Of a stretch of 31,909 nucleotides of DNA, positions 5,078 through 23,302 are shown piece by piece. Below the pieces are notes generated by a model. The model was not told the DNA's origin. It made no database searches and was given only the letters and a program-made list of their open reading frames with translations. Each line of letters begins with the position of its first letter. Positions within the stretch are counted from its first letter, which is position 1. The translations under genes were made by a program, and so were the position numbers. Origin of the DNA: a virus; IMG/VR virus record IMGVR_UViG_3300009177_000087, positions 1 to 31,909 of that record; one strand, written 5' to 3'.

Positions 5078-5084
5078 GGGGTAC

Positions 5085-5113: not shown

Positions 5114-5139
5114 GGCGGTGTCCAGCATGGGAGCGTGAA

Positions 5140-5631: not shown

Positions 5632-5635
5632 CGCA

Positions 5636-5749
5636 ATGTCAGCGTGGTGGTTAGTGGCTGGATTCGTAATAGTGGCTTTAATACCGCCCAAATACGACCC
5701 AGCTATCCGCATCAAAGAATGGCTAATGAAGGACAAGGACAAATGGTAG
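5636..5749 (+). CDS. 37-aa single-pass membrane peptide
   Basis: A short frame of 37 codons from ATG 5636 to TAG 5747-5749. It starts MSAWWLVAGFVIVALIPP, a single hydrophobic segment, and ends in a charged tail (IKEWLMKDKDKW). A GAAGG precedes the start, and its stop overlaps the ATG (5743) of the next gene, the usual coupling in this phage. The small size and topology suggest a membrane-acting early peptide such as an inhibitor or superinfection-exclusion factor. Function not determinable. Confidence 0.6.
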   Translation: MSAWWLVAGFVIVALIPPKYDPAIRIKEWLMKDKDKW

Positions 5750-7027: not shown

Positions 7028-8805
7028 TTGACCCAGAACTAGCGCTCAAGATCGTCCGACAATCGAAGCTGATAGCCTTCGACACCGAAACGACGGGGCT
7101 AACCGTCAAGGACAAGGTCTGCGGATGGGTAATCACCGATGAAGAACATTCCATTTATGTGCCTGTTAGACACGGGGGCGGCGGGAACATCCCCAACGCC
7201 GAGGAATTCGAAAAGGCCCTCTATAGTGCCTTTTATAGTCGCTTTCTTAATAATTTTCCTGCTGTGGGCCACAATATTGGGTTCGATTTACGGGTTGCTG
7301 CTCGCCACGGGGTGGTTATAGCCGGACCAGTAGAGGACACAATGATCAACGAGTCCATAATCAACGACCTCACCGTTGGTTACGGGCTCGAAGAATGTGC
7401 TGCCCGACACGGGGTAACAGCGAAAAAGGGAGCAGAACTATATGCCGCCATCGCAGCCAAGTTCGGTGGGCTCGCCGACCGGAAGCAGATGCAGCACTTT
7501 TCGAAGATGGCTGGAGACGATCCTGTCGTCGTGGATTATGCTACCGGTGACGGGACCACCACCTTACAACTACGGCAGGTTCAGCAGCCCATCATCGATC
7601 GCGACGATTTACGGCGGGTCTGGCGGCTGGAATGCGACCTTATCCCCTACCTCGCGCGAATGCACAGCCGGGGGTTGCGGATCGACGCCGAGTACTCCGA
7701 ACGGATTGCCGTCGACATAAAGGCCGCCATCGAAAAGGCGCAGACACAGTTTCCACTAGGGTTCAACGCCCGGTCGCCGAAAGATGTGGAGGGATTGTAT
7801 CGTGCCAACGGTTATCAGGATGCTGACTTCGCTCTCACCGAACAGAAAGCGGTGTCGTTCCGGGAAAAATGGCTTGAATCTAACGATATTGGCCAGTCTA
7901 TCCTCGCCGTACGAAGACTGGAGAAAGCCCGTGACTCGTTCATTAAACCTCTCGTGGATACACACAATTTCGGCGGGCGCGTTTACCCAATACTCAATCA
8001 GTCAAAGTCGGATGACTATGGTGTTGCCGGAGCAAGGCTGTCCTGTTCGGAGCCGAATCTACAAGCGTTCCCAAAGCGAAACATCGATATTGGCCGAGTG
8101 GTCCGAAGATTAGTAATTCCGGACGAGGGGATGCTGATCGAAGAGGCCGACGCCAAGCAGCAGGAACCCCGCCTGTTTACTCACTACTCCGAAGAACCGG
8201 CCCTCGTCGAGGGATACCGAAACGGCACAATGGATATGCACGACCGGGCCAGCGAAGTGCTGGGGCTTGACCGAGAGGTAGCCAAGCGGCTCGGGATGGG
8301 AATGCTGACGATGATGTCGGTTCCGACGCTGGCGGGTCATATGCGTTGGGACACAGAGCGAGCACGTGAAGCGCACGGCGCGTTCCTCACCGATGCCTTC
8401 CCCAAGATCAAGGAAATGCAGCAGACGGTCATGTCTGTTTTTCGGCGGCGCGGATACATCAAAACCATGCTGGGCCGTCGCGCTTATTGTGATGATCCGA
8501 AGTATGCCTATCGGGGCGTGAGCCGCCTGATTCAGAACAACGGCGGCGACCATATAAAGACGTGCATTCTCCGCGCCAACCAATACGAAGACGCGCACCC
8601 CGACAAGGTGCAGATGTTGCTCTCTATTCACGACTCCATGCTGTGGCAACGAACCCCAGACCACAGCCCCGTCGAACTGATAAAGGTCATCGAAAATGTG
8701 GCCGAAGAGATGAAACTGATAGTTCCCATACCATTTGGGCTCGGAAGCGGGCCTGATTGGGCTCGAGCCAGTTATGGCAGTAAACTAGATAAGTACGAAG
8801 ACTAA
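7024..8805 (+). CDS. dpoZ: Family A DNA polymerase with 3'-5' exonuclease, DpoZ type
   Basis: A 593-residue PolA-family polymerase without a 5' nuclease domain. Exonuclease motifs: FDTET (D20, E22), GHNIGFD (D88) and Y172xxxD176. Polymerase motif A is EADAKQQEPR (D376) in place of the usual DYSQIELR. Motif B is REVAKRLGMG (R417, K421). Motif C is IHDSM (H536, D537, S538) where most PolA enzymes have HDE. Company with PurZ, MazZ and DatZ identifies it as the Z-selective replicative polymerase; known DpoZ enzymes favour aminoadenine over adenine, aided by exonuclease proofreading. The ATG at 7024 overlaps the previous stop, with GGAG nine bases upstream. A promoter follows the stop. Confidence 0.85.
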   Translation: MIDPELALKIVRQSKLIAFDTETTGLTVKDKVCGWVITDEEHSIYVPVRHGGGGNIPNAEEFEKALYSAFYSRFLNNFPAVGHNIGFDLRVAARHGVVIAGPVEDTMINESIINDLTVGYGLEECAARHGVTAKKGAELYAAIAAKFGGLADRKQMQHFSKMAGDDPVVVDYATGDGTTTLQLRQVQQPIIDRDDLRRVWRLECDLIPYLARMHSRGLRIDAEYSERIAVDIKAAIEKAQTQFPLGFNARSPKDVEGLYRANGYQDADFALTEQKAVSFREKWLESNDIGQSILAVRRLEKARDSFIKPLVDTHNFGGRVYPILNQSKSDDYGVAGARLSCSEPNLQAFPKRNIDIGRVVRRLVIPDEGMLIEEADAKQQEPRLFTHYSEEPALVEGYRNGTMDMHDRASEVLGLDREVAKRLGMGMLTMMSVPTLAGHMRWDTERAREAHGAFLTDAFPKIKEMQQTVMSVFRRRGYIKTMLGRRAYCDDPKYAYRGVSRLIQNNGGDHIKTCILRANQYEDAHPDKVQMLLSIHDSMLWQRTPDHSPVELIKVIENVAEEMKLIVPIPFGLGSGPDWARASYGSKLDKYED

Positions 8806-9724: not shown

Positions 9725-10040
9725 GACAGCAAGGCAAGTGTTGGAGCAAGCCATCAACGCAATCGAGGAGGGAACCAAGAAACACGGCGACACCGCTAAG
9801 TCGTTCACCATGATCGCCGAACTGTGGAACATATACCTAAAGCACAGATGGGACAACAAAGTATGGGCGATTCATCCCCACGACGTGGCGGTTATGATGT
9901 CGCTGCTCAAAATCGCACGAGCCGCCCACAGTTATAGCTTCGACAACTATGTCGACGAGGCGGGTTACACCGCACTTGCCGCCATGCTTCACCCAACAAC
10001 AACAGCACCACATCCGGGCAAAACCAATGAATCTGTTTGA
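9711..10040 (+). CDS. DUF6378 family protein
   Basis: A 109-residue protein matching the pattern I know for DUF6378: an N-terminal A-x2-VLEQAI helix, KHGDTAKSFTMIAELWNIYL, then HDVAVMMSLLKIARA and a terminal VDEAGYTALAAML. The family is common in phage nucleotide-metabolism and replication regions, with no established biochemical activity that I can cite. The start is TTG at 9711 with a strong AAGGAGG just upstream, and it overlaps the nuclease gene. It ends inside the first codons of purZ, so it is translated together with it. Confidence 0.75.
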   Translation: MSDPKTARQVLEQAINAIEEGTKKHGDTAKSFTMIAELWNIYLKHRWDNKVWAIHPHDVAVMMSLLKIARAAHSYSFDNYVDEAGYTALAAMLHPTTTAPHPGKTNESV

Positions 10041-11061
10041 AAAAACCGGCGTCCACGTCCTCGTCGATGGACAATTCGGCTCCACGGGGAAGGGAGCGCT
10101 TGCCTCATTCCTAGCACGCGAGGCCGTCGAAAGCGGGGCCATAAAGGACTTCCAAGGGGTAATCACCAGCGCGGGGCCTAACAGTGGCCACACTAGCTAT
10201 TGGGGGCACGGCAAGATCATACTCAAGCAGCTGCCCACTTTCGCTGTCCAGGCCCATCTTATGGGTTACACGATCCCGGTGTTCCTGTCGGCCGGGGCGG
10301 TGATTAACCGGGACCAACTGTTCTTCGAAGCCAACACGTATCCCAGCATTCCGATACACGTTCATCCGAACGCAGCGGTGATCACCAAGGAAGCGATGCA
10401 GGAGGAGTTGAAGGGCAGCATCCGGGATATCGCCTCAACGCAGAGCGGAACCGGTGCGGCGCTCGCCCACAAGATATATCGCGAACCAGAGGCCATCGCT
10501 AAGAATAGCCTTGGCCCCACGCCGAAAAACGTGGTGATATCACATGTTCGCCCCAAACCGGACAGTAACGCCTATTTCATGGAAGTGTCGCAGGGGTTCT
10601 CGCTCGGCATCAACTCCGAGTTCTATCCCCATGTAACCAGCCGCGAGTGCACGGTTATGCAAGGCATCGCCGACGCCCGCATTCCGCCGCGACACGTGGC
10701 GAAGACCTACATGTGTGTTCGGACATACCCCATACGGGTCGGGAACCTAGGGACGTACTCCAGCGGCGATTGGTACGAAGACCAGACCGAAACATCATGG
10801 GACGAACTCGGGATCGATCCGGAACTCACCACGGTTACGCAGCGGGTTCGCCGGGTGGCCACCTTTTCGATGAGGCAATACATCGACGCCGTCTACGCGA
10901 ACGATCCGGATTGGGTGGCGGTCAACTTTATGAACTACCTGAACGACGCCAATCAGGCTGAACTTATGGACAACTTGATGGAAGCGCGGGCGCTAGTTTC
11001 TAAAGACCACGGCTTCATCGCCGGGTTCGGCCCCCACGCATCGCAGTGGAGGATATTGTGA
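10027..11061 (+). CDS. purZ: PurZ, 2-aminoadenylosuccinate (dSMP) synthase
   Basis: A 344-residue homologue of adenylosuccinate synthetase, shorter than PurA (about 430). The nucleotide loop reads DGQFGSTGKG (14-23). The PurA catalytic Asp (in WGDEGKG) is replaced by Ser19. The His of the NAGH motif is kept (NSGH, H55). PurZ condenses dGMP with aspartate, using ATP or dATP, to make the precursor of 2-aminoadenine deoxynucleotide. The Asp-to-Ser change fits a dGMP rather than IMP substrate. ATG 10027 is inside the end of the DUF6378 gene, with only a weak ribosome site; a longer in-frame start at 9949 is rejected because it adds a non-conserved tail. It overlaps datZ by four bases (GTGA). Confidence 0.9.
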   Translation: MNLFEKTGVHVLVDGQFGSTGKGALASFLAREAVESGAIKDFQGVITSAGPNSGHTSYWGHGKIILKQLPTFAVQAHLMGYTIPVFLSAGAVINRDQLFFEANTYPSIPIHVHPNAAVITKEAMQEELKGSIRDIASTQSGTGAALAHKIYREPEAIAKNSLGPTPKNVVISHVRPKPDSNAYFMEVSQGFSLGINSEFYPHVTSRECTVMQGIADARIPPRHVAKTYMCVRTYPIRVGNLGTYSSGDWYEDQTETSWDELGIDPELTTVTQRVRRVATFSMRQYIDAVYANDPDWVAVNFMNYLNDANQAELMDNLMEARALVSKDHGFIAGFGPHASQWRIL

Positions 11062-11606
11062 ACCCAATCTTCAGCGAACTAGACATGCGCCTTTCGGTGG
11101 TTCCCCGTTGGGTGGTGGTCCCGACGATCCAGAAGCAGAGCGTGGCGGAGCACTGCTTCAACGTGGAACGGATCGCCCGCCAGATTGCGCAGCAGTGGTT
11201 CAATATTCGCGACACCGACCGGCTGGACCGAATCTCCCAGCTGGCGCTCCATCACGACGATGACGAAGCCATAACGGGAGACATTCCCTCCCCCGCCAAA
11301 ACGATCCTCAGCGAAAAGTACCTTGACAACCGCGCCCGCCTGTGGTACAATGCCCACGGATCGCTGGGGCTCATCGTGAAGCTGGCCGACTTAATGGAGA
11401 TGTACCGATTCTTGGTTATGGAAACCATGCTTGGAAACCAGTATATCGACGAGTATTTGACAGAGCTTCTAAACAAGGTAAGGAACGTCTACCCCGACCA
11501 ATACAAGCGGTGGTTACAGTGGTCCGACGAGATATGCGCAATGAGGGGAACTACAATTGACCCAACTTTTGGAAGTACAAAAAGCGGCACTGAAAGCAGC
11601 GTATGA
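11058..11606 (+). CDS. datZ: DatZ, HD-domain dATP triphosphohydrolase
   Basis: A 182-residue HD-domain protein: H32 (SVAEHCFN), HD dyad H66-D67 in LALHHDDDE, and D111 in KLADLME. It resembles YfbR-type HD phosphohydrolases and has the length of known DatZ. In Z-phages DatZ removes dATP, so adenine is not offered to the polymerase. Immediately downstream of purZ with a GTG start (11058) and GGAGG at 11048-11052; the next gene starts 50 bases before its stop. A promoter (11323-11351) is embedded in it. Confidence 0.85.
   Translation: MNPIFSELDMRLSVVPRWVVVPTIQKQSVAEHCFNVERIARQIAQQWFNIRDTDRLDRISQLALHHDDDEAITGDIPSPAKTILSEKYLDNRARLWYNAHGSLGLIVKLADLMEMYRFLVMETMLGNQYIDEYLTELLNKVRNVYPDQYKRWLQWSDEICAMRGTTIDPTFGSTKSGTESSV
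11323..11351 (+). promoter_or_regulatory. Extended -10 promoter inside datZ
   Basis: TTGACA (11323-11328), a 17-base spacer ending in TGG, and TACAAT (11346-11351). The same architecture as the intergenic promoters, but within coding sequence; it would give the SNF2 helicase gene (11557) its own transcript. Confidence 0.65.
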
Positions 11607-12942
11607 CAAGCCGGGCTTTGCCTACTGGATGGAAATGGGGCTCGGGAAGACGCTTACGGCGCTTTCCGAGTTTGACTCCCTAGTCCACGAGGATAAGGTA
11701 ACGCGGCTGGTGGTGGTTTGTCCCAACTCGTTCAAGGGCGGGTGGGTCAGCGAAATAGAGAAGCAGGAAATTAACGTCGATCCGTGGGTATACGAGAGCG
11801 GCGCGGACAACAACGTATTTCTCAAGCGTTCGTTCAAGAAGCCACCGGTCTTGATCGTAAACTACGAGGCGATACGGCGAGTAGGAACTCAGGAGTTTAT
11901 TCGGCGGTTCATCGCGGGCCGAAAATGTATGGTCGTTTTCGACGAGAGCATCCAGCTGAAAAATAACAAGGCAGACCAAACCAAGGCCGCGATATCGCTG
12001 GCCTCCGGTTTTCGGTATGCCCGCATCCTTAGCGGCAAGCCTATGACGCAAGGCCCCCACGATTTGTGGGGCCAGATGCGAGTCATCGGGAAGCTTAACG
12101 GCTACAACTTCTACGCGTTTCGGGGCATGTTCTGCCGGATGGGTGGTTACCTGAACAAGAAGGTGATCGGCGTCCAAAATGAAAAACAACTGGCGGAGCT
12201 AGTCGATCCGCACGTGTTTCGGGCGACGAAGGATCAGTGGACGGACTTACCGCCGAAAGTGTATACCATCCGCGACGTTGAAATGGGCCAACGCCAGCAC
12301 CAGCAATACCGCACGATGGAGCGGGATTTCGTCACGTGGCTCGAAAACGGCGACAACGTCTCCGTGGACATGGCGATCACGAAATACACCAAGCTGGCCC
12401 AGATACAGTTCGGCTTCCTGATCGACGAACTCGGCGAAGTCCACGAGTTGGTGGAGCCCGAGGCAAACCCCCGAATTAACGCCATCAAAGACATGCTGGA
12501 CGACGAGATAGTGGGCAAACTAATCGTTGTGTATCACCACCGTTATGCCGGAGCCGCACTGCTCAACGCGCTGTCGAAGTACGACCCGGCCATTATTCGG
12601 GGCGGCATGAGTGACGCCGAACTCACCGGGGCGCGGTATCACTTCAACAATGACCCGGAGTGCCGCGTCATCCTAATTCAGACCACGGCTGGGCGTTACG
12701 GACATACCCTGCTGGGCCGGAACACCCCGACGGAGCAATGCTCCACGATGGTGTTCGCCGAAAATACGTGGTCCCTCGACACAAGGTCCCAGCTGGAAGA
12801 CCGGATGCACCGAATAGGGCAGGGGGCTGATTCCTGCCTCTACGTGGACTTGGTGGGTTCCAGCCTCGATCGCCGAATAGTTCAGGCCCTCCAGCAGAAG
12901 CAGTCGGTGTTCGACGCCGTGATGAAGCACATTGGGCGTTAG
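11557..12942 (+). CDS. SNF2-family DEAD/H-box helicase
   Basis: A 461-residue superfamily 2 ATPase: Walker A MGLGKT (G28-T32), motif II DESI (129-132) in place of DEAH, and motif VI QLEDRMHRIGQ (R416, R419). The small size, without extra insertions, is typical of phage SNF2 proteins. It probably translocates on dsDNA to remodel recombination or replication intermediates, perhaps with the VRR-NUC nuclease. The TTG start at 11557 has GAGGGGA upstream and overlaps datZ by 50 bases. It is the last gene of the left operon, and its TAG overlaps the stop of the convergent virion operon. Confidence 0.85.
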   Translation: MTQLLEVQKAALKAAYDKPGFAYWMEMGLGKTLTALSEFDSLVHEDKVTRLVVVCPNSFKGGWVSEIEKQEINVDPWVYESGADNNVFLKRSFKKPPVLIVNYEAIRRVGTQEFIRRFIAGRKCMVVFDESIQLKNNKADQTKAAISLASGFRYARILSGKPMTQGPHDLWGQMRVIGKLNGYNFYAFRGMFCRMGGYLNKKVIGVQNEKQLAELVDPHVFRATKDQWTDLPPKVYTIRDVEMGQRQHQQYRTMERDFVTWLENGDNVSVDMAITKYTKLAQIQFGFLIDELGEVHELVEPEANPRINAIKDMLDDEIVGKLIVVYHHRYAGAALLNALSKYDPAIIRGGMSDAELTGARYHFNNDPECRVILIQTTAGRYGHTLLGRNTPTEQCSTMVFAENTWSLDTRSQLEDRMHRIGQGADSCLYVDLVGSSLDRRIVQALQQKQSVFDAVMKHIGR

Positions 12943-15263
12943 AGTCCTAGATTTCGGAGAATCTTGTATAAGTTGGTAACGTTTTTAGGGTCCACGGCTG
13001 GAGCGGCGGGGGTTCGTTTCTTGATCAGGTCCATCATTTCGTTGGTCAGCTTCTTTGCGCCACGGTCTGCCACGCTGCGACCGTACATGCCAAGTGCCGG
13101 GATGCCGGGGAACGTCGCCAACCCTACCAACGGATTCATGGCATAGGCGAGGGACATACCGCCGATACCGGACGATATAACGCTGGGAAGTGAAGCCAAG
13201 TGCCCAGCAAATCGAGCCCCCTTCATGGCGGGGTCGCCCTTATTAATCCTCTGGAGCGCGTCCAACTCTTCGGACGAAAGATGCTCTACCACGCGCCGGT
13301 CGTTTAGCAGACCCTCTACCTGAGTACCTATCGCTTTATCGAAACCGTGACTATTGGGTCCCGCCGCGTGGACTTGCGCCCGCTTAATGGCTTCCTCTAC
13401 CCTACCCTCCGCTATCGCACGCAATTCCTCCGGGGTGGCTTGTCGCTTTTGCTGAGCGCGCTCTTTCTCGCGTTCTGCCTTGGATTTGCCGGTCTTCGCA
13501 CCCGCCGTACCTTCGATGATAGTGGCCTTGGGGTTCGGGGTCTTGGTTCCAGGCTTGGCTTTATTTAGTTGTGGCTGGTTCGGTTCAACGGTACCCGCCG
13601 CCGCCTTTCGGGGAACAATGTCCAAAGGTGCGGCAGTAGCTTTGCCCTGAACAATACCCTTTGCTCGCAGATTTGCCGCGTGCGCCAGCTTGGCGTCTTT
13701 ATCCGCTTGTTCCAGAGCCGCCGCCGTCTTCGGATTCTTATCGGCAAGGAACCGCTGATGCGCCCTTGCAAGCCTCGCATCCGCGTCGTCGTATTTCTTC
13801 TGGGCGATGGCCTGCTCTTCCGGAGTACCGGCGGTTCCTTCTGCCCTTGGCCCCGGATCGGCCAGCACGCCTTTCGGCGCGGGGTCAGCGAAATTAGCGA
13901 TCCTGTCATCCAGTTCCTTCAACGTAGCCCCTAGGCGCTGCCTCTGCGATGCTGTTGCATTGCCCGCCGAAAGCTGGCGGTCAATTACCTCGCGCTGGGC
14001 TTGCAGGGATGCCAACGTCTGAACAGCCGGTTCCGCAGCCAGCGGACCAGCCGGAGCGACGGGTGGAGCAGCAGGAGGAGCCGCTTCGGCAACCGGAGCG
14101 ACGGGGGCAACTAGAGCCGCCGTAGGAGCCGAAGGAGCCGCCGAAAGTTTGTCGATAGTTTTGGTATGCCTGTCTATTGAATTGGTAAGGGCCGTCTTCT
14201 GGTGGGCGAGCGAATTTCTGCGGGCAAGCCCCAGATTCGGGTTTGCAAGCTCTGCATCCACGTCAGCCAGAGCCTTCTGGGACCGTACCAAACCGGCCTT
14301 CGCGTCGGTTAGCCGTTTTGGCTCGGCTTTCGGTGCGACCAGAGGGCCTGCCGGAACGGCCGCAGGAGCCACAGGAGGCGCGACGGGCGGCATAGCCGGA
14401 GCGCCCTGAGCCAGCGGACCAGCGGGCGGAGGCGGGGCTACGGGAGGGGCAGCAGGAGGGGCTGCAGGAGGCGGTAACGGAATGACGTCGAGCGGCCCCG
14501 GCCTCTCTTCGGGGACCGCCATTGCAGGCATGTTCGCTTCTTCCCCGATCTTTACTCCAGCTTTCTCAACATTGGACGGAGTCGGAGCACCCGGATCGAC
14601 GGGGCGAACCCTCGGGCCTTTCAGCCCAATGGCATCGGCGGCGCTCTTAGCGCCTCGCGACATTCTACCACCTAGCTGTTCATCCAGCCACCTTGCCGCT
14701 CCCGGAATAGCACCGATGGCTTGGGCTATTGCGTGACCGCCCGCGCCGAAAGCACCGCCAACAGCCGCGCCCTGTTGCACATCATCGCCATGCATTGCAG
14801 CATCGGCCGCGCCGTAACCAGCGTTCTCCAAGGCGGATGTTATCAACCCGGCAATGAACTTGACATCTTTCGGTCCACCGAGCCACTTGGTAACCCTTGG
14901 AACAGCGGTGGGAAGCAGCGGAGCCGTGCCGATCGCCCCGAGCACGTCCATTTCCGTTCCACCGCCGACTTCCATCCTTCTCTTTTCGGTCTCATATTTT
15001 TCAGCCTCATAGCCTTTGGAACCGGGCATCGCCGAAGCGAATCGGTCGCCAAGACCGAAAGCAGAGTCAGCCAGAATGCGCCCCGCGGAGTCTACGGAAC
15101 TGAGCAGCCTTTGCCCGAGCGGCAGATGCAGATGCTGCTGGCGAACGATACCCGCTATCTGAGCTTGGAGCGCGTCGTAGGACTCGGCCTGAGTTTCGCC
15201 GGGGGCGTCGTACGTGTCCCCGTTCGGCATCTCCCAACGCCAATACTTGGGTTCTTCGGCCAT
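12939..15263 (-). CDS. Large Ala/Pro-rich internal virion protein (putative ejection protein)
   Basis: A 774-residue protein. The N-terminus is aromatic (YWRWEMPNGDTYDAPGE). Next is a glycine/alanine-rich amphipathic stretch (around 150-200). Long Pro-Ala linkers lie near 250-310 and 375-410, separated by charged coiled-coil segments. Near the C-terminus there is a hydrophobic region (YAMNPLVGLATFPGIPALG) and a basic helix. This composition and its place at the 3' end of the virion operon match ejected internal proteins of podoviruses. ATG 15263 follows GGGAGAG and overlaps the upstream stop. No catalytic motif seen. Confidence 0.7.
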   Translation of the reverse strand: MAEEPKYWRWEMPNGDTYDAPGETQAESYDALQAQIAGIVRQQHLHLPLGQRLLSSVDSAGRILADSAFGLGDRFASAMPGSKGYEAEKYETEKRRMEVGGGTEMDVLGAIGTAPLLPTAVPRVTKWLGGPKDVKFIAGLITSALENAGYGAADAAMHGDDVQQGAAVGGAFGAGGHAIAQAIGAIPGAARWLDEQLGGRMSRGAKSAADAIGLKGPRVRPVDPGAPTPSNVEKAGVKIGEEANMPAMAVPEERPGPLDVIPLPPPAAPPAAPPVAPPPPAGPLAQGAPAMPPVAPPVAPAAVPAGPLVAPKAEPKRLTDAKAGLVRSQKALADVDAELANPNLGLARRNSLAHQKTALTNSIDRHTKTIDKLSAAPSAPTAALVAPVAPVAEAAPPAAPPVAPAGPLAAEPAVQTLASLQAQREVIDRQLSAGNATASQRQRLGATLKELDDRIANFADPAPKGVLADPGPRAEGTAGTPEEQAIAQKKYDDADARLARAHQRFLADKNPKTAAALEQADKDAKLAHAANLRAKGIVQGKATAAPLDIVPRKAAAGTVEPNQPQLNKAKPGTKTPNPKATIIEGTAGAKTGKSKAEREKERAQQKRQATPEELRAIAEGRVEEAIKRAQVHAAGPNSHGFDKAIGTQVEGLLNDRRVVEHLSSEELDALQRINKGDPAMKGARFAGHLASLPSVISSGIGGMSLAYAMNPLVGLATFPGIPALGMYGRSVADRGAKKLTNEMMDLIKKRTPAAPAVDPKNVTNLYKILRNLGL

Positions 15264-17389
15264 TACTTCTCTCCCGGCTTAACGGGGCGAACCTTGAGGC
15301 CCTTGTAGGTGCCCGTTGGTTCACCAGTATCGGACACCGCCTCTTCCATCGCCGCGTCAATTTCATCGTAGGTAGGAATACGATACCCGTTGCTCTTTGC
15401 GTCTGGTGATTTTGGATCGTAGACACCGTTCACCATTAACTCGCGGGCTGCCTTATATTGTACCAAGTTGCGTCGAAGAACCTGATCATTGTCCCACTGG
15501 TCCAGCGAACCTAAGGCCCGCTTTAGCAACAAGGCATCAGAATCAGTGACGTTGCCCAGAGCGCCACCGGTATCTGAAGCCTGCCGCATTTCATTGAGAG
15601 ACTCAATGGAAGTGGACGAGTTGATGACGCCTAGATTGTTTGCCAACGTGCGCTGTGAACCGCCCGGCTTCCAGTTAAGAGCCGCGCCCCAACCGGTAAC
15701 ACCTAGCCACGAGTGTTTATTTTCGTCGATGGCTCGAATGGCATCATCGACAGCGCGGTTGATAATCCTAAACTTAACGCGCTTATTGACGCCGGTGTTT
15801 TCTTTCTTCGACTCCGCCAGCGCAGCCTTAACCTCGTCATCACCCGTCTTCTGTTGGACAGCCAGAGTGTCGGCCGCAGTCTTGGCGGTTTCAGCCTTGG
15901 TTTTGGCTTCATCTAGAGCAGCAGGACCGGTTTCGCCGCCGATCTTGCGAGTAATAACAGTCCCATCCGGGTTGCGTAATGGTTCCAGAGTGTCGGGATC
16001 GGTAACTACTTCATAGCCTTCTTGAACCTTGCCACCAACTCCACCAGCTCCGCCAGCACCCACCGAAATAGAGGTACCACCGAAAGCACCTATCTTTACC
16101 AGCTGGGCTGGGGACAGAGGCTTGAGGCCACGCTTCGCGCGATCGGCATTTACAAGTTCCGTGATAGCCTTCTCTTTCTCCAGCGGGTCTTTCGGCGCGG
16201 TCGTAGCGAGTATCTGCCCATTGTCGATGCGCTTTCCGGAGTCCTTTTCAACCAGCACCTTGCTGCCGTCTGCCTGTTCAACATATATCGTATCAGGCAC
16301 TTTCTTCGGCGAAAGGGTCTTAACCAGAGCACCGGTATCCTTATCAATTAACATCTGGGTGCCGTCTGCCGCCGTCACAACCTCATTGTTCGGCTTAGAA
16401 GCCTCCTTAACGAATTCGTCGAGAGCGTCCGTCTCATTGAGATAAGTAGCGGCTGCTTCGGTGATACCAAACTGCTTCTGAATGAGTGGCAGATACTGCT
16501 CACGAAGCTTCTTGGACGCAGCCTTAGCCGCCGCCTCATCCTGCTTAATCTTCAGTTCGCCCTCTTGGACCGAAAGGCCACCCTCCGAAACCTTCTGAGC
16601 CCGCTCTTTCAGAGCCTGATCAGCCGGAGCGTTCTTAATATCCAGTTGTAGCTTCTTTTCGGCGAGGGTTGGTCCCGTAAACACGATGGGCTTACCATCC
16701 TTACTGCCAACCGGCACCTTACTAACCTTGTCTACGAGTATGTGATTTCCATCGCCCGCGTCGATGAACTCCGTTTCAGGCGGGTTGTCTGGGGAAATTT
16801 GGTGAATAATGTGTCCGTCGCGCGTGTCGATAAGCATCTGTCCTTGACGGCCGGACTGAACCACTTGCGTGTGCGGCTTCGCCATCTCCTGAATAACAGT
16901 ATCAAGCCCGCCCGTGCGATCCAGATACTCAAGGGTAGCGGGGTCAAGGCCGTATTGCTTGCCCAACGCTGGAAGCTGCGACGCACGAGCAGCACGATCC
17001 GTTTGTTCCTGCTGCATCTTCTGCAGAGCAATGAGATTGTCCATGCTCATTCCACCCGCGCCGGAACCAGCGCCACCCTTGCCGATGGTTGCAAGCAAAG
17101 CATCACGGTTGTCCTGATACGGCGAAAGACCAGCAGCAATCATCGTCGCGCCGCGCTGGAAAGCTGCCGTTCGCTGGCTCTGCTCCATCAGCTTTGTGTA
17201 CATCGCCACAAGGTCTGGAGGCGACTGATAAGCCTGTGGTTGCGCCGGAGGAGCAGCTGGAGGAGCGCCGCCATCGGTAGGAACAGCACCAACCGGAGGA
17301 ACAGCACCAGACGCAGCCTTTATCGCATCGGGGGTTAGTTTGCCCCCGCTCATCAATGTCTGCATCAGCGCGCCAATGTTAAAGGCCAT
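15263..17389 (-). CDS. Large internal virion protein with duplicated module
   Basis: A 708-residue protein. Pro/Ala-rich spacers occupy residues 30-55. Two copies of a ~90-residue unit lie at roughly 139-229 and 300-388, each with a helix ending near KPHT/KPNN followed by QMLID, an ISP/LSP turn and ILVDK/VLVEK. The remainder is helical, charged and Ala-rich. I take ATG 17389 rather than GTG 17392 because AGGACA is better spaced and it overlaps the upstream TGA. Likely a structural or ejected protein of the inner tail/core; no enzyme motif recognised. Confidence 0.7.
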   Translation of the reverse strand: MAFNIGALMQTLMSGGKLTPDAIKAASGAVPPVGAVPTDGGAPPAAPPAQPQAYQSPPDLVAMYTKLMEQSQRTAAFQRGATMIAAGLSPYQDNRDALLATIGKGGAGSGAGGMSMDNLIALQKMQQEQTDRAARASQLPALGKQYGLDPATLEYLDRTGGLDTVIQEMAKPHTQVVQSGRQGQMLIDTRDGHIIHQISPDNPPETEFIDAGDGNHILVDKVSKVPVGSKDGKPIVFTGPTLAEKKLQLDIKNAPADQALKERAQKVSEGGLSVQEGELKIKQDEAAAKAASKKLREQYLPLIQKQFGITEAAATYLNETDALDEFVKEASKPNNEVVTAADGTQMLIDKDTGALVKTLSPKKVPDTIYVEQADGSKVLVEKDSGKRIDNGQILATTAPKDPLEKEKAITELVNADRAKRGLKPLSPAQLVKIGAFGGTSISVGAGGAGGVGGKVQEGYEVVTDPDTLEPLRNPDGTVITRKIGGETGPAALDEAKTKAETAKTAADTLAVQQKTGDDEVKAALAESKKENTGVNKRVKFRIINRAVDDAIRAIDENKHSWLGVTGWGAALNWKPGGSQRTLANNLGVINSSTSIESLNEMRQASDTGGALGNVTDSDALLLKRALGSLDQWDNDQVLRRNLVQYKAARELMVNGVYDPKSPDAKSNGYRIPTYDEIDAAMEEAVSDTGEPTGTYKGLKVRPVKPGEK

Positions 17390-18096
17390 CACTGTTGTCC
17401 TGTTAGACTAAGACCATACCGCTTTCGGCGACTATCCAGTAGAGTAGCCATTAGGGCAGAAGCCCCGGCGCTCAAATCTGCGCCTCCGGAGCCCGCCGAA
17501 ATAGGGGCACCAACGGATTGAACCGGAGCCTGTTCCTCGGAGGTATTGACGTTGCCACCGATACCTTGCTGTATCATCTTCAAGCCCGCCGCCATCGGAT
17601 CAGAAGCAGCCGGAGCAGCCGGAGCCCCCGGAGTCGCGGTAAGCGTGGTGCCCACCGAACCGGGCTTAACGCCGCCGAGCGAGTTGACGAGCCACGCCGG
17701 GGCGTTTGCACCCCTTCCGCCCGCGCCCCAGACACCGGGCGTGTCGAACCCGACATGGAACGTGGTATTTCCCATATAGTCGGAGCCAGCGCCTATTCCT
17801 GCCGCCCCTCCTGCTTTAGATGCTTGCAAAAATGATTCAATGATCGGCAAATCATCCTTGTTCGTAAAGTCGAGCGCGCGTCCGCCCTTAATGAGCTGTA
17901 TATCTCCCGCGCCACCCAGATCATGGCGATGTGAACCGGTACGATGAGACCCAGACGCTTCCTGTCCGCCCGAGACAACCCGTACGGCATCGATCCCCGC
18001 CTTCTCTGCTGCTTGTTGATAAATACGTGTAAGCTCCGTCTTCAGCTGCTGATTACGGATGGAGCCTTGATTAGCGTAGAGTAGATTATACGCCAC
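17389..18096 (-). CDS. Virion-associated peptidase M15-like peptidoglycan hydrolase
   Basis: A 235-residue protein. The N-terminal domain shows a zinc-peptidase pattern: GSHRTGSHRHDLGGAGD with H58 and D65, and a later His in TTFHVGFD (H114), like M15 D,D-carboxypeptidases or endolysin peptidases. The second half is an Ala/Gly/Pro-rich linker ending in a basic LLDSRRKRYG tail that resembles the tail of the next upstream gene product. It probably cuts peptide bonds of peptidoglycan during DNA entry. The start is GTG 18096 with GGAGG five bases upstream. It overlaps the upstream gene by 11 bases. Confidence 0.7.
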   Translation of the reverse strand: MAYNLLYANQGSIRNQQLKTELTRIYQQAAEKAGIDAVRVVSGGQEASGSHRTGSHRHDLGGAGDIQLIKGGRALDFTNKDDLPIIESFLQASKAGGAAGIGAGSDYMGNTTFHVGFDTPGVWGAGGRGANAPAWLVNSLGGVKPGSVGTTLTATPGAPAAPAASDPMAAGLKMIQQGIGGNVNTSEEQAPVQSVGAPISAGSGGADLSAGASALMATLLDSRRKRYGLSLTGQQ

Positions 18097-18820
18097 CGGG
18101 GCCTCCGCTATCTAATGTAACACCCTGGTACCGTTTTCGGCGAGTCGCCATGAGAGCCGCCATCATTTGCGCCGCTGCCGACGCGCTCGGTATATTGGCG
18201 TCGACGCTGGAAGGTGTGAGCTGGTTCGCCGAAGGATCAGACTTAGACCGTGAACCGAGCGAAGCAGCGAAAGTACCGAGCCCCGCGAGGATGTCCGCGA
18301 GCTTGGAATTACCCGGAGCGGCTGCTGTGGTTCCCGGCCTAGTGGGGGGCAGCGGAACACCTGAGGCGTCTGGTGCTGATATTCCCGCACCGGGTCCATC
18401 AGCCGGAATTGGAAAAGCGGCCGCGCCCGTTCCACCATATCTTGCGGAATTTAGTGAGATACCTAGCGGCTTGGTCGCATCACTAAATCCGGCGTCTAAA
18501 GGAATCCTAACTCTCGCCGCGCCATGGAACGGTGCCCAACTTCGTTGGCGAGCAGCGGAGTCCAAAGCAAACTCAATGCCTGCCCTCCAGTCTTTTCGGG
18601 GGTCATAGTTGGACTTCAGCATCTCCTTGCCGAGCCCGCCCTCCACATTCAGCTGGAAAGCGCCATAAGATGGCTCGTAAGTGCCGTCTTTCCGTTTAAT
18701 GTTACTCCGCTGGAACGGGTCTGTAACCCCGCCCTCCGACATCGCTACTTGAACAGCGATGTCCGGATCGATGCCGCGAGCAGCTGCCGCCTTGCGGATG
18801 AAGTCTTCGATGTAGTTCAT
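18086..18820 (-). CDS. Virion-associated lysozyme-like transglycosylase
   Basis: A 244-residue protein. The first ~130 residues have a lytic-transglycosylase/lysozyme pattern: a helix with the probable catalytic Glu29 (VAMSEGG) and SYGAFQLN (51-58), as in SLT folds. A long Pro/Gly/Ala linker follows. The end ALMATRRKRYQG parallels the tail of the downstream M15-like protein. It likely cleaves the glycan backbone during genome delivery. ATG 18820 overlaps the stop of the ART-like gene (ATGA). The ribosome site is weak, so coupled translation is likely. Confidence 0.7.
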   Translation of the reverse strand: MNYIEDFIRKAAAARGIDPDIAVQVAMSEGGVTDPFQRSNIKRKDGTYEPSYGAFQLNVEGGLGKEMLKSNYDPRKDWRAGIEFALDSAARQRSWAPFHGAARVRIPLDAGFSDATKPLGISLNSARYGGTGAAAFPIPADGPGAGISAPDASGVPLPPTRPGTTAAAPGNSKLADILAGLGTFAASLGSRSKSDPSANQLTPSSVDANIPSASAAAQMMAALMATRRKRYQGVTLDSGGPGGV

Positions 18821-19800
18821 TTTTTTCTCATTAATTTTATGGTGTTCTTAGCCTGCTCTATCTTTGCCTTGTAGTATTCCGGCGGGAAATCCATAAACAT
18901 TCCCCCCTTCAAAATACGTTGATAGTTTTCCAGTTTCTTTTGCATTCGTTCAACGGACGGATGATATATCTCCTGCATGAACGCATCATCTGTTAATTTC
19001 TCGGTACCGACCGGCCCCAATTGGGTAGGCACATTTTCGGCGTTCGGTGAAACATAGTCCTTATTGCTAAGTACCCCGCGCAACTTACCCGCTTCTTGCG
19101 CAACTTCTGAGAACTTAGGAACAGCGCGAGAGGGATCCATTAACATTACCGCGTGATCGTACGGATCTTCTGAATATGGATTCCAGTGCGGGTATTTAAC
19201 TGAGTCATATCCAAAATCCTTAAAAGCATCTAGGGTTGGCTTCCCCTCTTTAAGACGGTTATAGATGTCCAACAAATCCGGATTATCAAAGGAAGAAAAG
19301 TACTCCAAGGTGTCCGCAACATGTACGGGATCGTTCCATTTTAATGGGTCTGCCGGGAAATCCAACTGCCTGCCCGGATCAGCGTACATCGGATAAGTAC
19401 GGGGACCGGCCAGCGTCATCCCTTTTGGCAATTTACCACGATCCTGCGCTAGAAGTAAATTTATGTCAGGGGTGTCATAGTTCATGCTGTAATAATCGGC
19501 TATATTGGGTGACGAGGTTAAATGTAGTCCTTCGTCGTACAAACTACCACCGGGCCGATCGTAGTTTACCCTCCTGTTGGTTCCATGGTACAACTCTTCC
19601 AACGGCGGCCCCGGCTTTGAAAAATCGGGATGTACACTTTCAGGAGCCACCGGCTTTGCGAGTACGCCCTTAACCGGCGACCTTCCAATAAGCTTAGCGC
19701 CACTTCCAGCAAGCGTCTTGCCTTCGGCCTTGAGCAGCCCGGTCCCAAGCTTCTCGTCCAGCGTACCAAGAATGCCCTTTATGAGCTTCTGACTAGCCAC
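18817..19800 (-). CDS. ART-like protein, third tandem paralogue
   Basis: A 327-residue protein. Residues 1-50 form a leader shared with two upstream paralogues (LIKGILG, LDEKLGTG, AGSGAKLIGRSP). The core then has YHGTNRR (H72), GLHLTSSPNIADYYS (91-105), PRTYPMYADPG and, near 220, FGYDSVKYPHWN...AVMLMDPSRAVPKF. This order resembles phage ADP-ribosyltransferase domains: YHGT, G-h-h-T plus Tyr, a PMY strand, then GYD and a MDPS strand at the position of the third catalytic residue. If active, it would transfer ADP-ribose from NAD to a host target. The start is GTG 19800 in a GTGGCTAG context shared by all three. The region is visibly richer in A+T. Confidence 0.6.
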   Translation of the reverse strand: MASQKLIKGILGTLDEKLGTGLLKAEGKTLAGSGAKLIGRSPVKGVLAKPVAPESVHPDFSKPGPPLEELYHGTNRRVNYDRPGGSLYDEGLHLTSSPNIADYYSMNYDTPDINLLLAQDRGKLPKGMTLAGPRTYPMYADPGRQLDFPADPLKWNDPVHVADTLEYFSSFDNPDLLDIYNRLKEGKPTLDAFKDFGYDSVKYPHWNPYSEDPYDHAVMLMDPSRAVPKFSEVAQEAGKLRGVLSNKDYVSPNAENVPTQLGPVGTEKLTDDAFMQEIYHPSVERMQKKLENYQRILKGGMFMDFPPEYYKAKIEQAKNTIKLMRKK

Positions 19801-19803
19801 TTG

Positions 19804-20976
19804 TTACTCTTCCGTTAGCTTTTTGAGTAGAGCTTTATACGCTTTCGTTTGGCCAAGAGCCTTATCGTTTATGTCCTGATCAACATGGAAATCTCCCGTC
19901 GCCCACGCTTGATCCGCCTTGTCTTTCAGTATTTTTTCTGCCTGAATACTTTCAGGAGTAGCCATCGCCGCGTGCTTATCCTTTAATTTTTGAATATTTT
20001 TTGCTAAGGCGGCCTTTTTGTTCGGCGGAAGCTGGCCATACTTGTACTCTAACTCCATGTGGTCAATTTCATTCATAAGTTTTCGCTGGGTCGGGTTCCA
20101 TAGCTCGTATAAAAATTCCTCGGGCGGCAACGCATGAACGCCCTCTGGTCCCAACACATCCGCAATATCCTGAGCGGTTATGTCGGGATACGCAATTTTT
20201 TCCGGGGCCAACACCCCTCTTACTTTTGCAGCTTGTTGACCGACTTCTGAATACTTTGGTACGGCTCGCGACGGGTCCAACAACATTAAAGCCTGTCCCG
20301 AATCCGTGTTGTCTATCGGGTTGTAATGTGGATACCCCACCGAATGGTAACCCAAATCCGTTAAGGTTGTGCCCACAGGCTTTCCGCCACGCATATCTTG
20401 TATTATTTTTTCATAGATGGGATCGTTAAGATAATTCCCCCAATCGGTTTTCGACCAATACCGCCTCTGTTCATCAATGGAATCCGCCACTTGCTCCGGG
20501 TCTACCCATTTTCCGGCGTCCGCCGGGAAATGAATCTTATTCCCAGGATCGGCATACATAGGATAAACACGCGGCCCCGCCAAGCTAAACTTTGGTACCT
20601 TATCAGTGGCCGCCGCTTTCAGCAAGTTTAAATCTGGCGTATCGTAGTTCAATGCATAAAAATCAGACACCATCGGGGTGCTCGTTAAGTGCAGCCCAAA
20701 ATCATCATAAAATCCAGCGCCGGGTCGGTCAAAATTTGCCCGTCTGTTCGTGCCGTGATACACTTCTTCCAACGGTGGTCCCGGCTTCAAGAAATCTGGG
20801 TGCACACTTTCAGGCAACGGCTCTGCAGGCTTCGCAAGAATGCCACGAACGGGGGACCTTCCAACAAGCTTCGCCCCACTTCCAGCAAGCGATCGGCCCT
20901 CGGCTTTAAACAAGCCGGTACCGAGCTTCTCGTCGAGTGCCCCGAGTATACCCTTAATGAGCTTAGTGCTAGCCAC
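19804..20976 (-). CDS. ART-like protein, second tandem paralogue
   Basis: A 390-residue paralogue, the longest of the three. It shares the N-terminal leader (LDEKLGTGLFKAEGRSL) and ART-like core: YHGTNRR (H74), FGLHLTSTPMVSDFYA (Y107), PRVYPMYADPG, then LGYHSVGYPHYN and ALMLLDPSRAVPKYSEVG. It has an extra C-terminal helical region of about 110 residues (LWNPTQRKLMNEID, NKKAALAKNIQKLKDKH). Start GTG 20976 overlaps the upstream TAG by one base, with AAGGG nearby. It is closer to the third paralogue than to the first. Function inferred as ADP-ribosyltransferase only from the motif order. Confidence 0.6.
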   Translation of the reverse strand: MASTKLIKGILGALDEKLGTGLFKAEGRSLAGSGAKLVGRSPVRGILAKPAEPLPESVHPDFLKPGPPLEEVYHGTNRRANFDRPGAGFYDDFGLHLTSTPMVSDFYALNYDTPDLNLLKAAATDKVPKFSLAGPRVYPMYADPGNKIHFPADAGKWVDPEQVADSIDEQRRYWSKTDWGNYLNDPIYEKIIQDMRGGKPVGTTLTDLGYHSVGYPHYNPIDNTDSGQALMLLDPSRAVPKYSEVGQQAAKVRGVLAPEKIAYPDITAQDIADVLGPEGVHALPPEEFLYELWNPTQRKLMNEIDHMELEYKYGQLPPNKKAALAKNIQKLKDKHAAMATPESIQAEKILKDKADQAWATGDFHVDQDINDKALGQTKAYKALLKKLTEE

Positions 20977-21896
20977 TATTTGCCCTTTTGTCTTTCTTCG
21001 AATATAAGATCGGCAATACGGTCGGCAAATCCTCCCCTCGCCGCTTCCTCCGACGACGGTTCTTGTAATGCGTACTTGATTAGCGTATCCATGTCCATAT
21101 CTGGGTAGCCAGCAAGTAGCTGGTGCATCATCGCTTTATCGTCCAAAGGCGGCCGATCCGTATCTAACCCCAACACCCCCCTAGCTTTCTTTGCTTGTTG
21201 TCCAATATCCGAAAATTCCGGAACGGCGCGACGGCGATCAAATAACATCAGCCCCTTACCTGTCGCCGGGGCATATCGAGGACGATCCCGATAAGGAGTG
21301 TCGTGTCCATACAACATAGAGTCATAGCCCGCATCACGGAGAGTTTTAACAACCGGCTTATCAAAAGCCAATTGTTGTAAAATGTAATCTATTTCGCGGG
21401 GCACTTCCATGTCTTGATAGTCTTCGTAAGCACGCATCGCTACTCGATAGGGATCATCCCAAGGACCATAATCTCGTTCAAACCCCGTAAAAGGCTTGCC
21501 CGGATCGACTAGCATTGGATAAACCCGAGGCCCCGCCGGTCCCTTTACCCTCTGAATGGGTTTGTCCAAATACGGATGAAGCGCGTAAACATCTGCAATA
21601 CCCGGTGAACCCGTTAAATGTAGCCCCTCATCCGCTAAATTGCCTTTCGGCCTATCAAAGGGGTATTTTCTATTAGATCCGTGAAGCATACGCCACAACG
21701 GGTCGCCAGTTTCTTTCAACAAATCCGGGTGCACAGTGTTAGGATTCAGTGGCTTCGCAAGAACTCCAGGGGGTGTTCTGCCAACAAGCTTCGCGCCGCT
21801 GGTCGCAAGCGATCGGCCCTCGGCCCCAAATATCTTTGTGCCCAGATTGTCTTCGAGGGCATTGAGTATGCCCTTGACGAGTCTCGTGCTAGCCAC
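20976..21896 (-). CDS. ART-like protein, first tandem paralogue
   Basis: A 306-residue paralogue, the most divergent. It keeps the leader (VKGILNALEDNLGTK, AEGRSLATSGAKLVGR) and the ART-like elements: LHGSNRK (H72), GLHLTGSPGIADVYAL (Y104), PRVYPMLVDPG, DAGYDSMLYGHD and KGLMLFDRRRAVPEFSDIG. The DPSR of the other copies has become DRRR, so one site residue may differ. The C-terminus is short and acidic. Its GTG start at 21896 is inside the last codons of the upstream gene, with no clear ribosome site, so expression is probably coupled. Confidence 0.6.
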   Translation of the reverse strand: MASTRLVKGILNALEDNLGTKIFGAEGRSLATSGAKLVGRTPPGVLAKPLNPNTVHPDLLKETGDPLWRMLHGSNRKYPFDRPKGNLADEGLHLTGSPGIADVYALHPYLDKPIQRVKGPAGPRVYPMLVDPGKPFTGFERDYGPWDDPYRVAMRAYEDYQDMEVPREIDYILQQLAFDKPVVKTLRDAGYDSMLYGHDTPYRDRPRYAPATGKGLMLFDRRRAVPEFSDIGQQAKKARGVLGLDTDRPPLDDKAMMHQLLAGYPDMDMDTLIKYALQEPSSEEAARGGFADRIADLIFEERQKGK

Positions 21897-22944
21897 TTGT
21901 TAGGATACCCATCGGCACGGTCTTGAGGCCACCCACTTCCCGTACGACGCCGGGATACTTCTTCTCCACATCTTGCGCCATCGGACCGATGACTTTCGGT
22001 GTATCTTTCCGCTGCCCCTTGTACCGATATGAGTAGAGCGGCAACCCCGTGGTCTTCGCCTTGCCGACGCGCTTAATGTCGGTCTTCGCGCGCTTATCCG
22101 ATATGCCCATCATCATCGGCAAGAATTGCATCAGCCCGCCGAAAATGGTGCCGAAGTCCATCCCCTGCTTTTCGGAGGTAGACGTCTTCTCCATGTTTTC
22201 GGTCTTGCCGTACGGAGACATACCCAACGCCGAGAGGCGCATGTTAAGCTGCTCCAATGGGTAGTCGCGCTTCTCATAGAACCGGGACTTTTTGGCGTCG
22301 AGTTCAGCTTGGCGCTGTTTTTGCTCCTGCGAACCCGCTCCGAGAAGAGCGCTGGCATCGCCAAGTCTTGTTCTGGCCCTCGCATCGGCCGTATTCGTAA
22401 TACCAGCGGCGGCGTCTCGCATTCCGGAGCGATCGGTAAACATGTTGGCGACGGCAGTGTCGTATCCAGACTTGCGAAGCTCCGCCGAAAGGTCGCCTAT
22501 CCCTCTGGCACCCTCGGCGGCGAGAATGCCCTTCTGAACACCAGCAGCGGACCCGCCGAAAGCGCCCGCCTTCATCGCGGCGTCGTCGGCAGCCGACAAC
22601 TGGCCGGTAAGAGCCCGGTTCGCGTTGTCGATGGAGCGGCTCTCAACGTTGTCAATATACGGGTTGAGGTATTGCGTAGGATCGAACGGCCCCGCAGACT
22701 TGTCGTAAAGACCCTTGGCGTCGCTGTACCAAGGGGTCTCCGAACCAGCCCCCTCGGATATCATCTTGTAGCCTTGGTTCGTCATTGCCGACGGGTCTAC
22801 AACATCCTGTCCGCCCCACTGCTTAAGGGGGCGAGCAGATATTCTTTGCGCCATCCCGTAGTTGGCTTGCGAAGCCTTGTCCACCCAAGCCGGAAGCTTT
22901 ACTTCGGTTGTTTGAGTGGTGTGAGCAGGAGCGCTACCGCCCAT
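21889..22944 (-). CDS. Structural protein with peptidase S74-type intramolecular chaperone domain
   Basis: A 351-residue protein. The first ~280 residues are helical and Ala/Gly-rich (TQYLNPYIDNVESRSIDNANR, KSRFYEKRDYPLEQLN). They resemble phage proteins that accompany the tail fibre or inner tail. The C-terminal ~70 residues start at Ser282 with ISDKRAKTDIKRVG and continue with PLYSYRYKG and VIGPMAQDVEKKYP, the signature of the S74 chaperone that trimerises and self-cleaves at its Ser. ATG 22944 (AAAGGA nine bases upstream) is preferred over GTG 22977. It overlaps its upstream neighbour by 11 bases. Confidence 0.75.
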   Translation of the reverse strand: MGGSAPAHTTQTTEVKLPAWVDKASQANYGMAQRISARPLKQWGGQDVVDPSAMTNQGYKMISEGAGSETPWYSDAKGLYDKSAGPFDPTQYLNPYIDNVESRSIDNANRALTGQLSAADDAAMKAGAFGGSAAGVQKGILAAEGARGIGDLSAELRKSGYDTAVANMFTDRSGMRDAAAGITNTADARARTRLGDASALLGAGSQEQKQRQAELDAKKSRFYEKRDYPLEQLNMRLSALGMSPYGKTENMEKTSTSEKQGMDFGTIFGGLMQFLPMMMGISDKRAKTDIKRVGKAKTTGLPLYSYRYKGQRKDTPKVIGPMAQDVEKKYPGVVREVGGLKTVPMGILTSG

Positions 22945-23302
22945 TTTCCAAATCCTTTGCAAAGTAGCCGCCGACACGGTACCAACCCGGTTCAGCGAAC
23001 TTCCACCATCCGTCGCGGCCGACTGCAGTTACTCGATTTGCCCCGATGCTTCGGGCGAAGTTATAGATTTCGGGGAGCGCATGGGTCGCTTCTTCGATAA
23101 ACCCTACTACCAAGGCTATGTCCACCACCTTTCGGCGGGGAAATTCGTTGACTTGTGTTACGATCCAAGTGTCACCCACCGCGAAGCTCTGCATCTTGCC
23201 TTCGTTGATAAGGCCCATTATGTCGTCAAAAGTGTACAGGTTGCCGAAAGCGTCCAGCGCCCGCTCCACTTTAATCCGCATGTCGTCGCGAGTAATGTTC
23301 AC
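22934..23302 (-). CDS. Conserved phage protein, possibly GNAT-like fold
   Basis: A 122-residue protein with the sequence order W-IVTQV, EFPRRKVVDIALVVG, an ATHALPEIYNFARSIGANRV helix-strand and VGRDGWWKF. This pattern occurs in small phage tail-region proteins; a GNAT-like fold is my guess from the strand/helix layout. The GTG start at 23302 overlaps the previous stop (GTGA); ATG 23281 is a possible alternative. It is probably a minor tail or assembly protein. Confidence 0.6.
   Translation of the reverse strand: MNITRDDMRIKVERALDAFGNLYTFDDIMGLINEGKMQSFAVGDTWIVTQVNEFPRRKVVDIALVVGFIEEATHALPEIYNFARSIGANRVTAVGRDGWWKFAEPGWYRVGGYFAKDLENGR

What the first reader, a model, noticed from the sequence alone, without database searches (positions are those of the whole stretch)
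18817..21896. Three tandem ADP-ribosyltransferase-like paralogues in the virion operon
Three consecutive genes encode YHGT/LHGS, GLHLT plus Tyr, PMY/PML-DPG, then GYDS and LMDPSRAVPKF-type segments, an ART-like order. They sit beside putative ejected wall hydrolases and internal proteins, so they may be injected as host-modifying effectors, like T4 Alt. Diverged copies suggest different targets. I know of no described tandem set of this kind.
Basis: partly seen in the sequence, partly recalled or inferred. Interest (0 to 1): 0.85.

Follow-up and report, generated by a model that had tools for sequence, protein, structure and literature searches.

The report
Three virion-operon ADP-ribosyltransferase-like cassettes
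A bacterial virus carries three side-by-side genes, each a conserved "address label" joined to a fast-changing enzyme-like domain of the ADP-ribosyltransferase fold, sitting among the genes for proteins it probably injects into its host, so they are probably delivered effectors, though their chemistry is altered and untested.

Summary
Three adjacent minus-strand genes (18817-19800, 19804-20976, 20976-21896; 44-56% identical to copy A) sit in a tightly coupled operon between an S74-domain ejection protein and two wall-hydrolase-like virion proteins. The ART reading is supported, though only remotely. PF18760 (ART-PolyVal) is the single Pfam match, below its cut-off, and all core blocks align in order with 23 phage ART-PolyVals. 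A model of the core (pLDDT 81, built with those relatives) finds ART-PolyVals, an anti-CRISPR ART and PARP/toxin ARTs. They are not T4 Alt relatives. The signature is H-H-D rather than the family's H-Y-D. Each protein has a ~52-aa leader (61-81% identical, 58% GC) joined to a more divergent ART core (37-55% identical; rest of gene 46-50% GC) and a variable tail. A close relative has one copy at this site, with 69-93% identical neighbours but only ~43% identical to any of the three; Ochrobactrum phage OH and other relatives have none. Best reading: leader-tagged, rapidly turning-over virion ARTs, probably injected to modify host or defence targets. Packaging, injection and catalysis are inferred; a pseudoenzyme or structural role is not excluded.

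The parts
21889..22977 (-). S74-chaperone 'DNA ejection protein' gene, upstream neighbour; overlaps copy C by 8 nt
   Evidence: PF13884 E 5.7e-11; phrog_4287 DNA ejection protein E 9.1e-36; phiM5 has an S74 tailspike-annotated protein at the matching place, detected in particles
20976..21896 (-). ART-like copy C, 306 aa, first of the three in transcription order
19804..20976 (-). ART-like copy B, 390 aa, second, longest C-terminal tail; start overlaps stop of C by 1 nt
18817..19800 (-). ART-like copy A, 327 aa, third; last 4 nt overlap the next gene
   Evidence: PF18760 E 0.084 whole protein, 0.045 core
21741..21896 (-). leader of copy C (first 52 codons), GC 57.7%
20821..20976 (-). leader of copy B (first 52 codons), GC 57.7%
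19645..19800 (-). leader of copy A (first 52 codons), GC 57.7%
21165..21710 (-). ART-like core of copy C with its RGVL linker
   Evidence: alignment with ART-PolyVals
20206..20781 (-). ART-like core of copy B with its RGVL linker
19066..19611 (-). ART-like core of copy A (residues 64-245); H72, H93, Y104, D222
   Evidence: AF2 model pLDDT 80.6, pTM 0.74; fold searches
18086..18820 (-). lysozyme/SLT-like internal virion protein, downstream neighbour
   Evidence: homologue of phiM5 gp28 (particle proteome), OH gp39 and phiGT1 gp18
17389..18096 (-). putative M15-like peptidase; by sequence reading only (SHRxGxxRHDLGGAGD...FHVG)
   Evidence: sequence; no Pfam match
15263..17392 (-). 709-aa putative internal virion protein
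   Evidence: position and phrog_24864 E 3e-11
12939..15263 (-). 774-aa putative internal virion protein
   Evidence: position; 83% identical homologue at the same place in L010

Best explanation
These are three leader-tagged effector cassettes of a Z-genome podovirus related to Ochrobactrum phage OH. Each protein has a conserved N-terminal leader of about 52 aa, inferred to recruit it into the virion or ejection machinery. The leader is followed by a divergent ART-fold domain related to ART-PolyVal, then a variable C-terminal extension. They are made late with the ejection proteins, probably carried inside the capsid, pushed into the host with S74, lysozyme and internal virion proteins, and there use NAD+ to modify host or defence components before phage transcription starts. 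Copies diversify and are lost or swapped at the leader/cargo boundary, as expected for counter-defence cargo. Shown here: genes, paralogy, operon, homology by fold and profile, leader/cargo difference, copy-number variation. Inferred: packaging, ejection, NAD+ chemistry, target.
For: ART core: PF18760 is the only match in 24,736 Pfam models, in the right register (residues 69-205 to profile 8-115; E 0.084, core 0.045). Core blocks align in order with 23 ART-PolyVals and share H72, G91, Y104, Y136, W155, P158, G197, Y203 and D222. AF2 core model pLDDT 80.6, pTM 0.74. Its viral matches are dominated by polyvalent/ART-PolyVal proteins (53 with E<=0.001). Its best PDB matches are a cyanophage A4 pre-ejectosome chain (8.3e-4), the anti-CRISPR protein 6kyf = AcrIF11, an ART (3.7e-3), then toxin, tankyrase and NatT ARTs (AcrIF11 identity from PMC12421852). 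Virion context: inserted between S74 and hydrolase genes whose phiM5 counterparts were detected in particles; the same S74 - hydrolase - internal protein order occurs without ARTs in OH, phiM5, phiGT1 and other contigs. An ART-PolyVal also sits in the head module of the related podovirus phiGT1 (gp5). Leader/cargo: leader 61-81% identical against core 37-55% and tail 5-29%; GC 57.7% against 46-50%, below every 700-nt window of the other virion genes (minimum 50.5%). Turnover: relative L010 has one copy whose neighbours are 69-93% identical but which is only 42-43% identical to A, B or C; DNA similarity runs through S74 into the leader, stops, and resumes at the hydrolase gene. Packaging of ARTs near head genes is an established phage theme (PMC9503650, PMC5512222).
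Against: The full-length model without ART-PolyVal rows was poor (pLDDT 47) and matched nothing, so the good model is not independent of the homology assumption. A profile of one narrow ART-PolyVal subgroup did not score these proteins above shuffled copies, and profile-profile comparison gave only p = 0.005, probability 7%. The family Tyr is His and the strand-5 Asn is Ala/Gly in all copies. There is no proteomic evidence for packaging. No antitoxin, macrodomain or target gene was recognised that would point to a substrate, though this was not searched for systematically.
Confidence: 0.52

Rival explanations
1. Pseudoenzymes or structural ejection proteins: the ART fold is kept but serves as a binding or building block of the ejectosome or capsid interior, without NAD+ chemistry.
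For: Strand-2 Tyr is His and the strand-5 Asn position is Ala/Gly; the top PDB fold match is a podovirus pre-ejectosome chain; location among internal virion proteins.
Against: OH, phiM5 and other relatives have none here, so they are not required for a virion. Cargo diverges far faster than the structural neighbours. H72 and D222 are invariant in all four copies. AcrIF11Pae1 is described with a non-canonical H-F-H-D set and is active (PMC12421852).
Confidence: 0.25
2. Late intracellular ARTs that are not packaged: made during infection for superinfection exclusion or host shut-off, and located in the virion operon only by recombination history.
For: No packaging data; low-GC cargo suggests recent acquisition.
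Against: Same-operon coupling by overlapping codons; a leader with host-phage composition kept through cargo change fits a shared destination; late expression would miss the early host-takeover window.
Confidence: 0.15
3. Not ARTs: an unrelated phage domain whose short motifs resemble ART strands.
For: No significant single-sequence or PDB profile match; Pfam score below cut-off; narrow profile at shuffle level.
Against: Block-by-block alignment including W155 and Y203, invariant in all 27 rows; specific PF18760 match; ART-dominated fold neighbours.
Confidence: 0.08

Closest known systems
ART-PolyVal (PF18760), Tox-ART-HYD2 clade of polyvalent phage and plasmid proteins
   Same: Order of core blocks, strand-1 His, helix Tyr, W/P and Y landmarks, strand-5 Asp; virion-gene neighbourhood
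   Different: Strand-2 Tyr is His, strand-5 Asn is Ala/Gly; small stand-alone proteins with a dedicated leader instead of large multidomain proteins; below the Pfam cut-off
Sulfitobacter phage phiGT1 gp5 (MT584811, 4918-6081)
   Same: Single ART-PolyVal protein in the structural module of a related podovirus
   Different: Lies between portal and scaffold, one copy, ordinary family member, no shared leader detected (searched only part of phiGT1)
T4 Alt/ModA/ModB
   Same: Proposed logic: packaged ART acting at once on the host; several ARTs in one phage
   Different: R-S-E clade; these proteins have His in strand 1; no detectable sequence relation
AcrIF11 (PDB 6kyf), phage ART anti-CRISPR
   Same: Second-best PDB fold match; shows that non-canonical phage ARTs can be active and disable defence
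   Different: Expressed in the cell, no virion leader known; weak structural score (E 3.7e-3)
Ochrobactrum phage vB_OspP_OH and Sinorhizobium phage phiM5
   Same: Same gene order of S74 protein, wall hydrolase and internal virion proteins; OH also encodes PurZ
   Different: No ART genes between S74 and hydrolase genes

Membership tests
ART-PolyVal / Tox-ART-HYD2 | Score above Pfam curated cut-off (31.2 bits) | tested here: not met
   14.1 and 15.0 bits for copy A, none for B, C and the L010 copy
ART-PolyVal / Tox-ART-HYD2 | His in strand 1 | tested here: met
   H72 in all 4 copies and 22 of 23 ART-PolyVals
ART-PolyVal / Tox-ART-HYD2 | Tyr in strand 2 | tested here: not met
   H93 in all 4 copies; Tyr in 30 of 30 non-redundant relatives
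ART-PolyVal / Tox-ART-HYD2 | Asp in strand 5 | tested here: met
   D222 in all 4 copies and 21 of 23 relatives; definition from PMC5512222; that D222 is the Asp meant is inferred from the alignment
ART-PolyVal / Tox-ART-HYD2 | ART fold with blocks in order | tested here: met
   the model depends on relatives in the alignment
ART-PolyVal / Tox-ART-HYD2 | Part of a multidomain polyvalent protein | tested here: not met
   Proteins of 306-390 aa with one recognised domain
T4 Alt/VIP2 (R-S-E) ARTs | Arg-Ser-Glu active-site set | tested here: not met
   His at the strand-1 position; no Alt-type Pfam, PHROG or NCBIfam match
T4 Alt/VIP2 (R-S-E) ARTs | Packaged and injected | not testable with these tools
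   needs virion proteomics
H-H-h ART clade (KptA-like) | His in strands 1 and 2 | tested here: met
   H72 and H93 in all copies
H-H-h ART clade (KptA-like) | Hydrophobic third position and relation to KptA | tested here: inconclusive
   Ala/Ala/Gly/Ala at the candidate position, but D222 is kept; no KptA family match
Podoviral ejection / internal virion proteins | Encoded within the conserved ejection-protein block | tested here: met
Podoviral ejection / internal virion proteins | Conserved across related virions | tested here: not met
   Absent at the syntenic place in OH, phiM5, phiGT1 and other contigs
Podoviral ejection / internal virion proteins | Present in purified particles | not testable with these tools
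   no proteome for this uncultured phage

The most novel reading that the evidence does not exclude
A modular virion-delivery system: a short phage-specific N-terminal leader that addresses interchangeable cargo to the capsid or ejectosome, used here to deliver a set of ARTs with a new H-H-D active site (possibly acting on nucleotides or nucleic acids rather than proteins), duplicated and swapped as defence changes.
Probability: 0.22. Interest if true: 0.78.

Novelty: new variant of a known kind. Interest (0 to 1): 0.52.

Why it matters
If the leader is a packaging or ejection signal, it would be a minimal address tag for loading proteins into a small podovirus, useful for finding unknown injected effectors (search for the tag) and for studying how phages time counter-defence before transcription. 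The altered active site also asks whether virion ARTs have shifted chemistry. Both points are directly testable with small proteins.

Tried and rejected
BLAST-level relatives: tblastn against phages with copy A, L010 copy and B core, and against plasmids with the A core, found nothing credible. Pattern-guided scans of viral contigs found only an identical contig and L010; genome contigs none; profile over 399 genomes none (no positive control). PDB profile searches: none relevant. Full-length AF2 model: unusable, and its fold search meaningless. Narrow ART-PolyVal HMM against shuffled decoys: no separation. An 'RGVL(A)' motif flanks the ART cores and recurs in internal virion proteins (8 seen, 1.2 expected in the window block; also enriched in L020 and L021, not in OH or L012); paralogues are not independent, so kept as a lead only. 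Leader search found no ART-free carrier of the leader in held loci. T4 Alt membership rejected on the active-site set.
Full report
**What is there.** The window is a virus record of 31,909 bases. Three adjacent minus-strand genes, A (18817-19800), B (19804-20976) and C (20976-21896), encode paralogues of 327, 390 and 306 aa, with 56% (B) and 44% (C) identity to A. They are tightly packed: S74 gene/C overlap 8 nt, C/B 1 nt, B-A gap 3 nt, A/next gene 4 nt. An overlapping contig, 22.9 kb, is 100% identical over 13.5 kb and carries the same three genes.

**Genome context.** Plus-strand genes include a family A polymerase, PurZ-like adenylosuccinate synthetase, a YfbR-like dATPase-type gene and helicase. 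Minus-strand genes are virion genes: scaffold, major head protein, tail proteins, S74 ejection protein, then the three genes, hydrolase-like proteins and two long internal proteins. The nearest named phage is Ochrobactrum phage vB_OspP_OH (PurZ 52.5%, structural protein 39.7%). In OH the S74 gene (gp40) directly adjoins the hydrolase gene (gp39). The same order without ARTs is seen in phiM5, phiGT1 and several IMG/VR contigs. In phiM5 the S74 protein and the hydrolase were detected in particles, and the window's hydrolase neighbour is homologous to that phiM5 hydrolase. The three genes are therefore an insertion into a conserved ejection-protein block.

**Are they ARTs?** Sequence evidence is remote but specific. 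PF18760 is the only Pfam model matched by copy A, in the right register and below the cut-off. Alignment with ART-PolyVals from viral loci places every core block in order. Shared positions are H72, G91, Y104 (F in L010), Y136, W155, P158, G197, Y203 and D222. Profile-profile comparison with one narrow subgroup gave p = 0.005 with low probability, and that subgroup's HMM did not beat shuffles. A full-length model of copy A with only its three relatives failed (pLDDT 47). A model of the core with ART-PolyVal rows reached pLDDT 80.6 and pTM 0.74. Its fold neighbours are ART-PolyVal and polyvalent proteins and, in the PDB, a cyanophage A4 pre-ejectosome chain, 6kyf (AcrIF11), a toxin ART, tankyrase and NatT. 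TM-scores are modest (0.34-0.53 by query), and the model was built with the family in the alignment, so this supports but does not independently prove the fold.

**Active site.** The family is described as His (strand 1), Tyr (strand 2), Asp (strand 5) (PMC5512222). Here His and Asp are kept in all four known copies, and the strand-2 Tyr is His in all four; all 30 non-redundant relatives have Tyr. The strand-5 position that is Asn in 23 of 23 relatives is Ala/Ala/Gly/Ala. Non-canonical sets can be active: AcrIF11Pae1 is reported as H-F-H-D (PMC12421852). A survey places the H-H-h ART clade mainly in RNA repair and small-molecule chemistry (PMC9503650), so a substrate shift is possible but unproven.

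**Leader and cargo.** The first ~52 residues are 61-81% identical between copies, the core 37-55%, the tail 5-29%. All three leaders have 57.7% GC, like the other virion genes; the rest of each gene has 46-50%, below every 700-nt window in the other virion genes (minimum 50.5%). Four-fold third positions are saturated in the core but less so in the leader for AB, BC and BD (46-58% same against 16-27%; Fisher p 0.011, 0.032, 0.034 uncorrected). Leaders therefore seem to have been conserved or exchanged separately from the cargo.

**Turnover.** Contig L010 (IMGVR_UViG_3300045284_000136) is a close relative: S74 89%, hydrolases 69-74%, internal proteins 83-84%, helicase 93% identical. It has one copy only, 42-43% identical to A, B or C. 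Its DNA similarity to the window runs through S74 into the leader, stops near the leader/core junction and resumes at the hydrolase gene. This is the strongest evidence for cassette-like behaviour, but it rests on one relative.

**How it most likely works (inferred steps marked).** Late transcription with ejection proteins (inferred from operon). Leader-directed inclusion in the virion (inferred). Ejection with the hydrolases and internal proteins (inferred). NAD+-dependent modification of a host or defence component (inferred; about half likely). Rapid divergence and copy-number change favour defence targets over a conserved host target such as RNA polymerase (inference). Rivals are a catalytically dead structural role and a non-packaged late effector.

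**Compared with what is known.** Head-packaged phage ARTs and ARTs next to head genes are an established theme: about 44% of phage ARTs lie in such contexts (PMC9503650). Multiple ART domains in one protein are known (PMC5512222), and two of the relatives fetched here also carry two or more ART matches in one ORF (L149, L159). New here are small separate tandem genes with a common leader, the H-H-D signature and cargo turnover. Because strand-2 Tyr and the Pfam cut-off were tested and not met, I do not file them as ART-PolyVal members; they are relatives of that family and may work like it.

Noticed in passing
window 9949-11606 (+), with 6967-8805 (+): PurZ-like gene, dATPase-type (YfbR-like) gene and family A DNA polymerase: a Z-genome (2-aminoadenine DNA) gene set, nearest to Ochrobactrum phage OH.
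   Followed up: partly
window 12939-15263, 18817-20976, 21889-22977 (-); L020, L021: Short motif G[VIL]L[AST], often after R/K, is enriched in ejection-block proteins (8 seen, 1.2 expected in the window) and flanks the ART cores; possibly a processing or packaging site.
   Followed up: partly
window 17389-18820 (-); L010 2646-3762: C-termini of successive internal virion proteins share an RRKRY/RKRG...L(T/S)L-like tail; L010 has an extra 133-aa gene ending in a similar way that was not matched in the window.
   Followed up: no
L191 (phiGT1) 4918-6081: Sulfitobacter phage phiGT1 gp5, annotated hypothetical, contains an ART-PolyVal domain between portal and scaffold genes.
   Followed up: partly
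L194 (G001:C1:1-9600): The identical overlapping contig continues beyond the window's 31909 end with ORFs that look like terminase large subunit and portal by sequence reading, so the phage is about 41 kb, like OH.
   Followed up: partly
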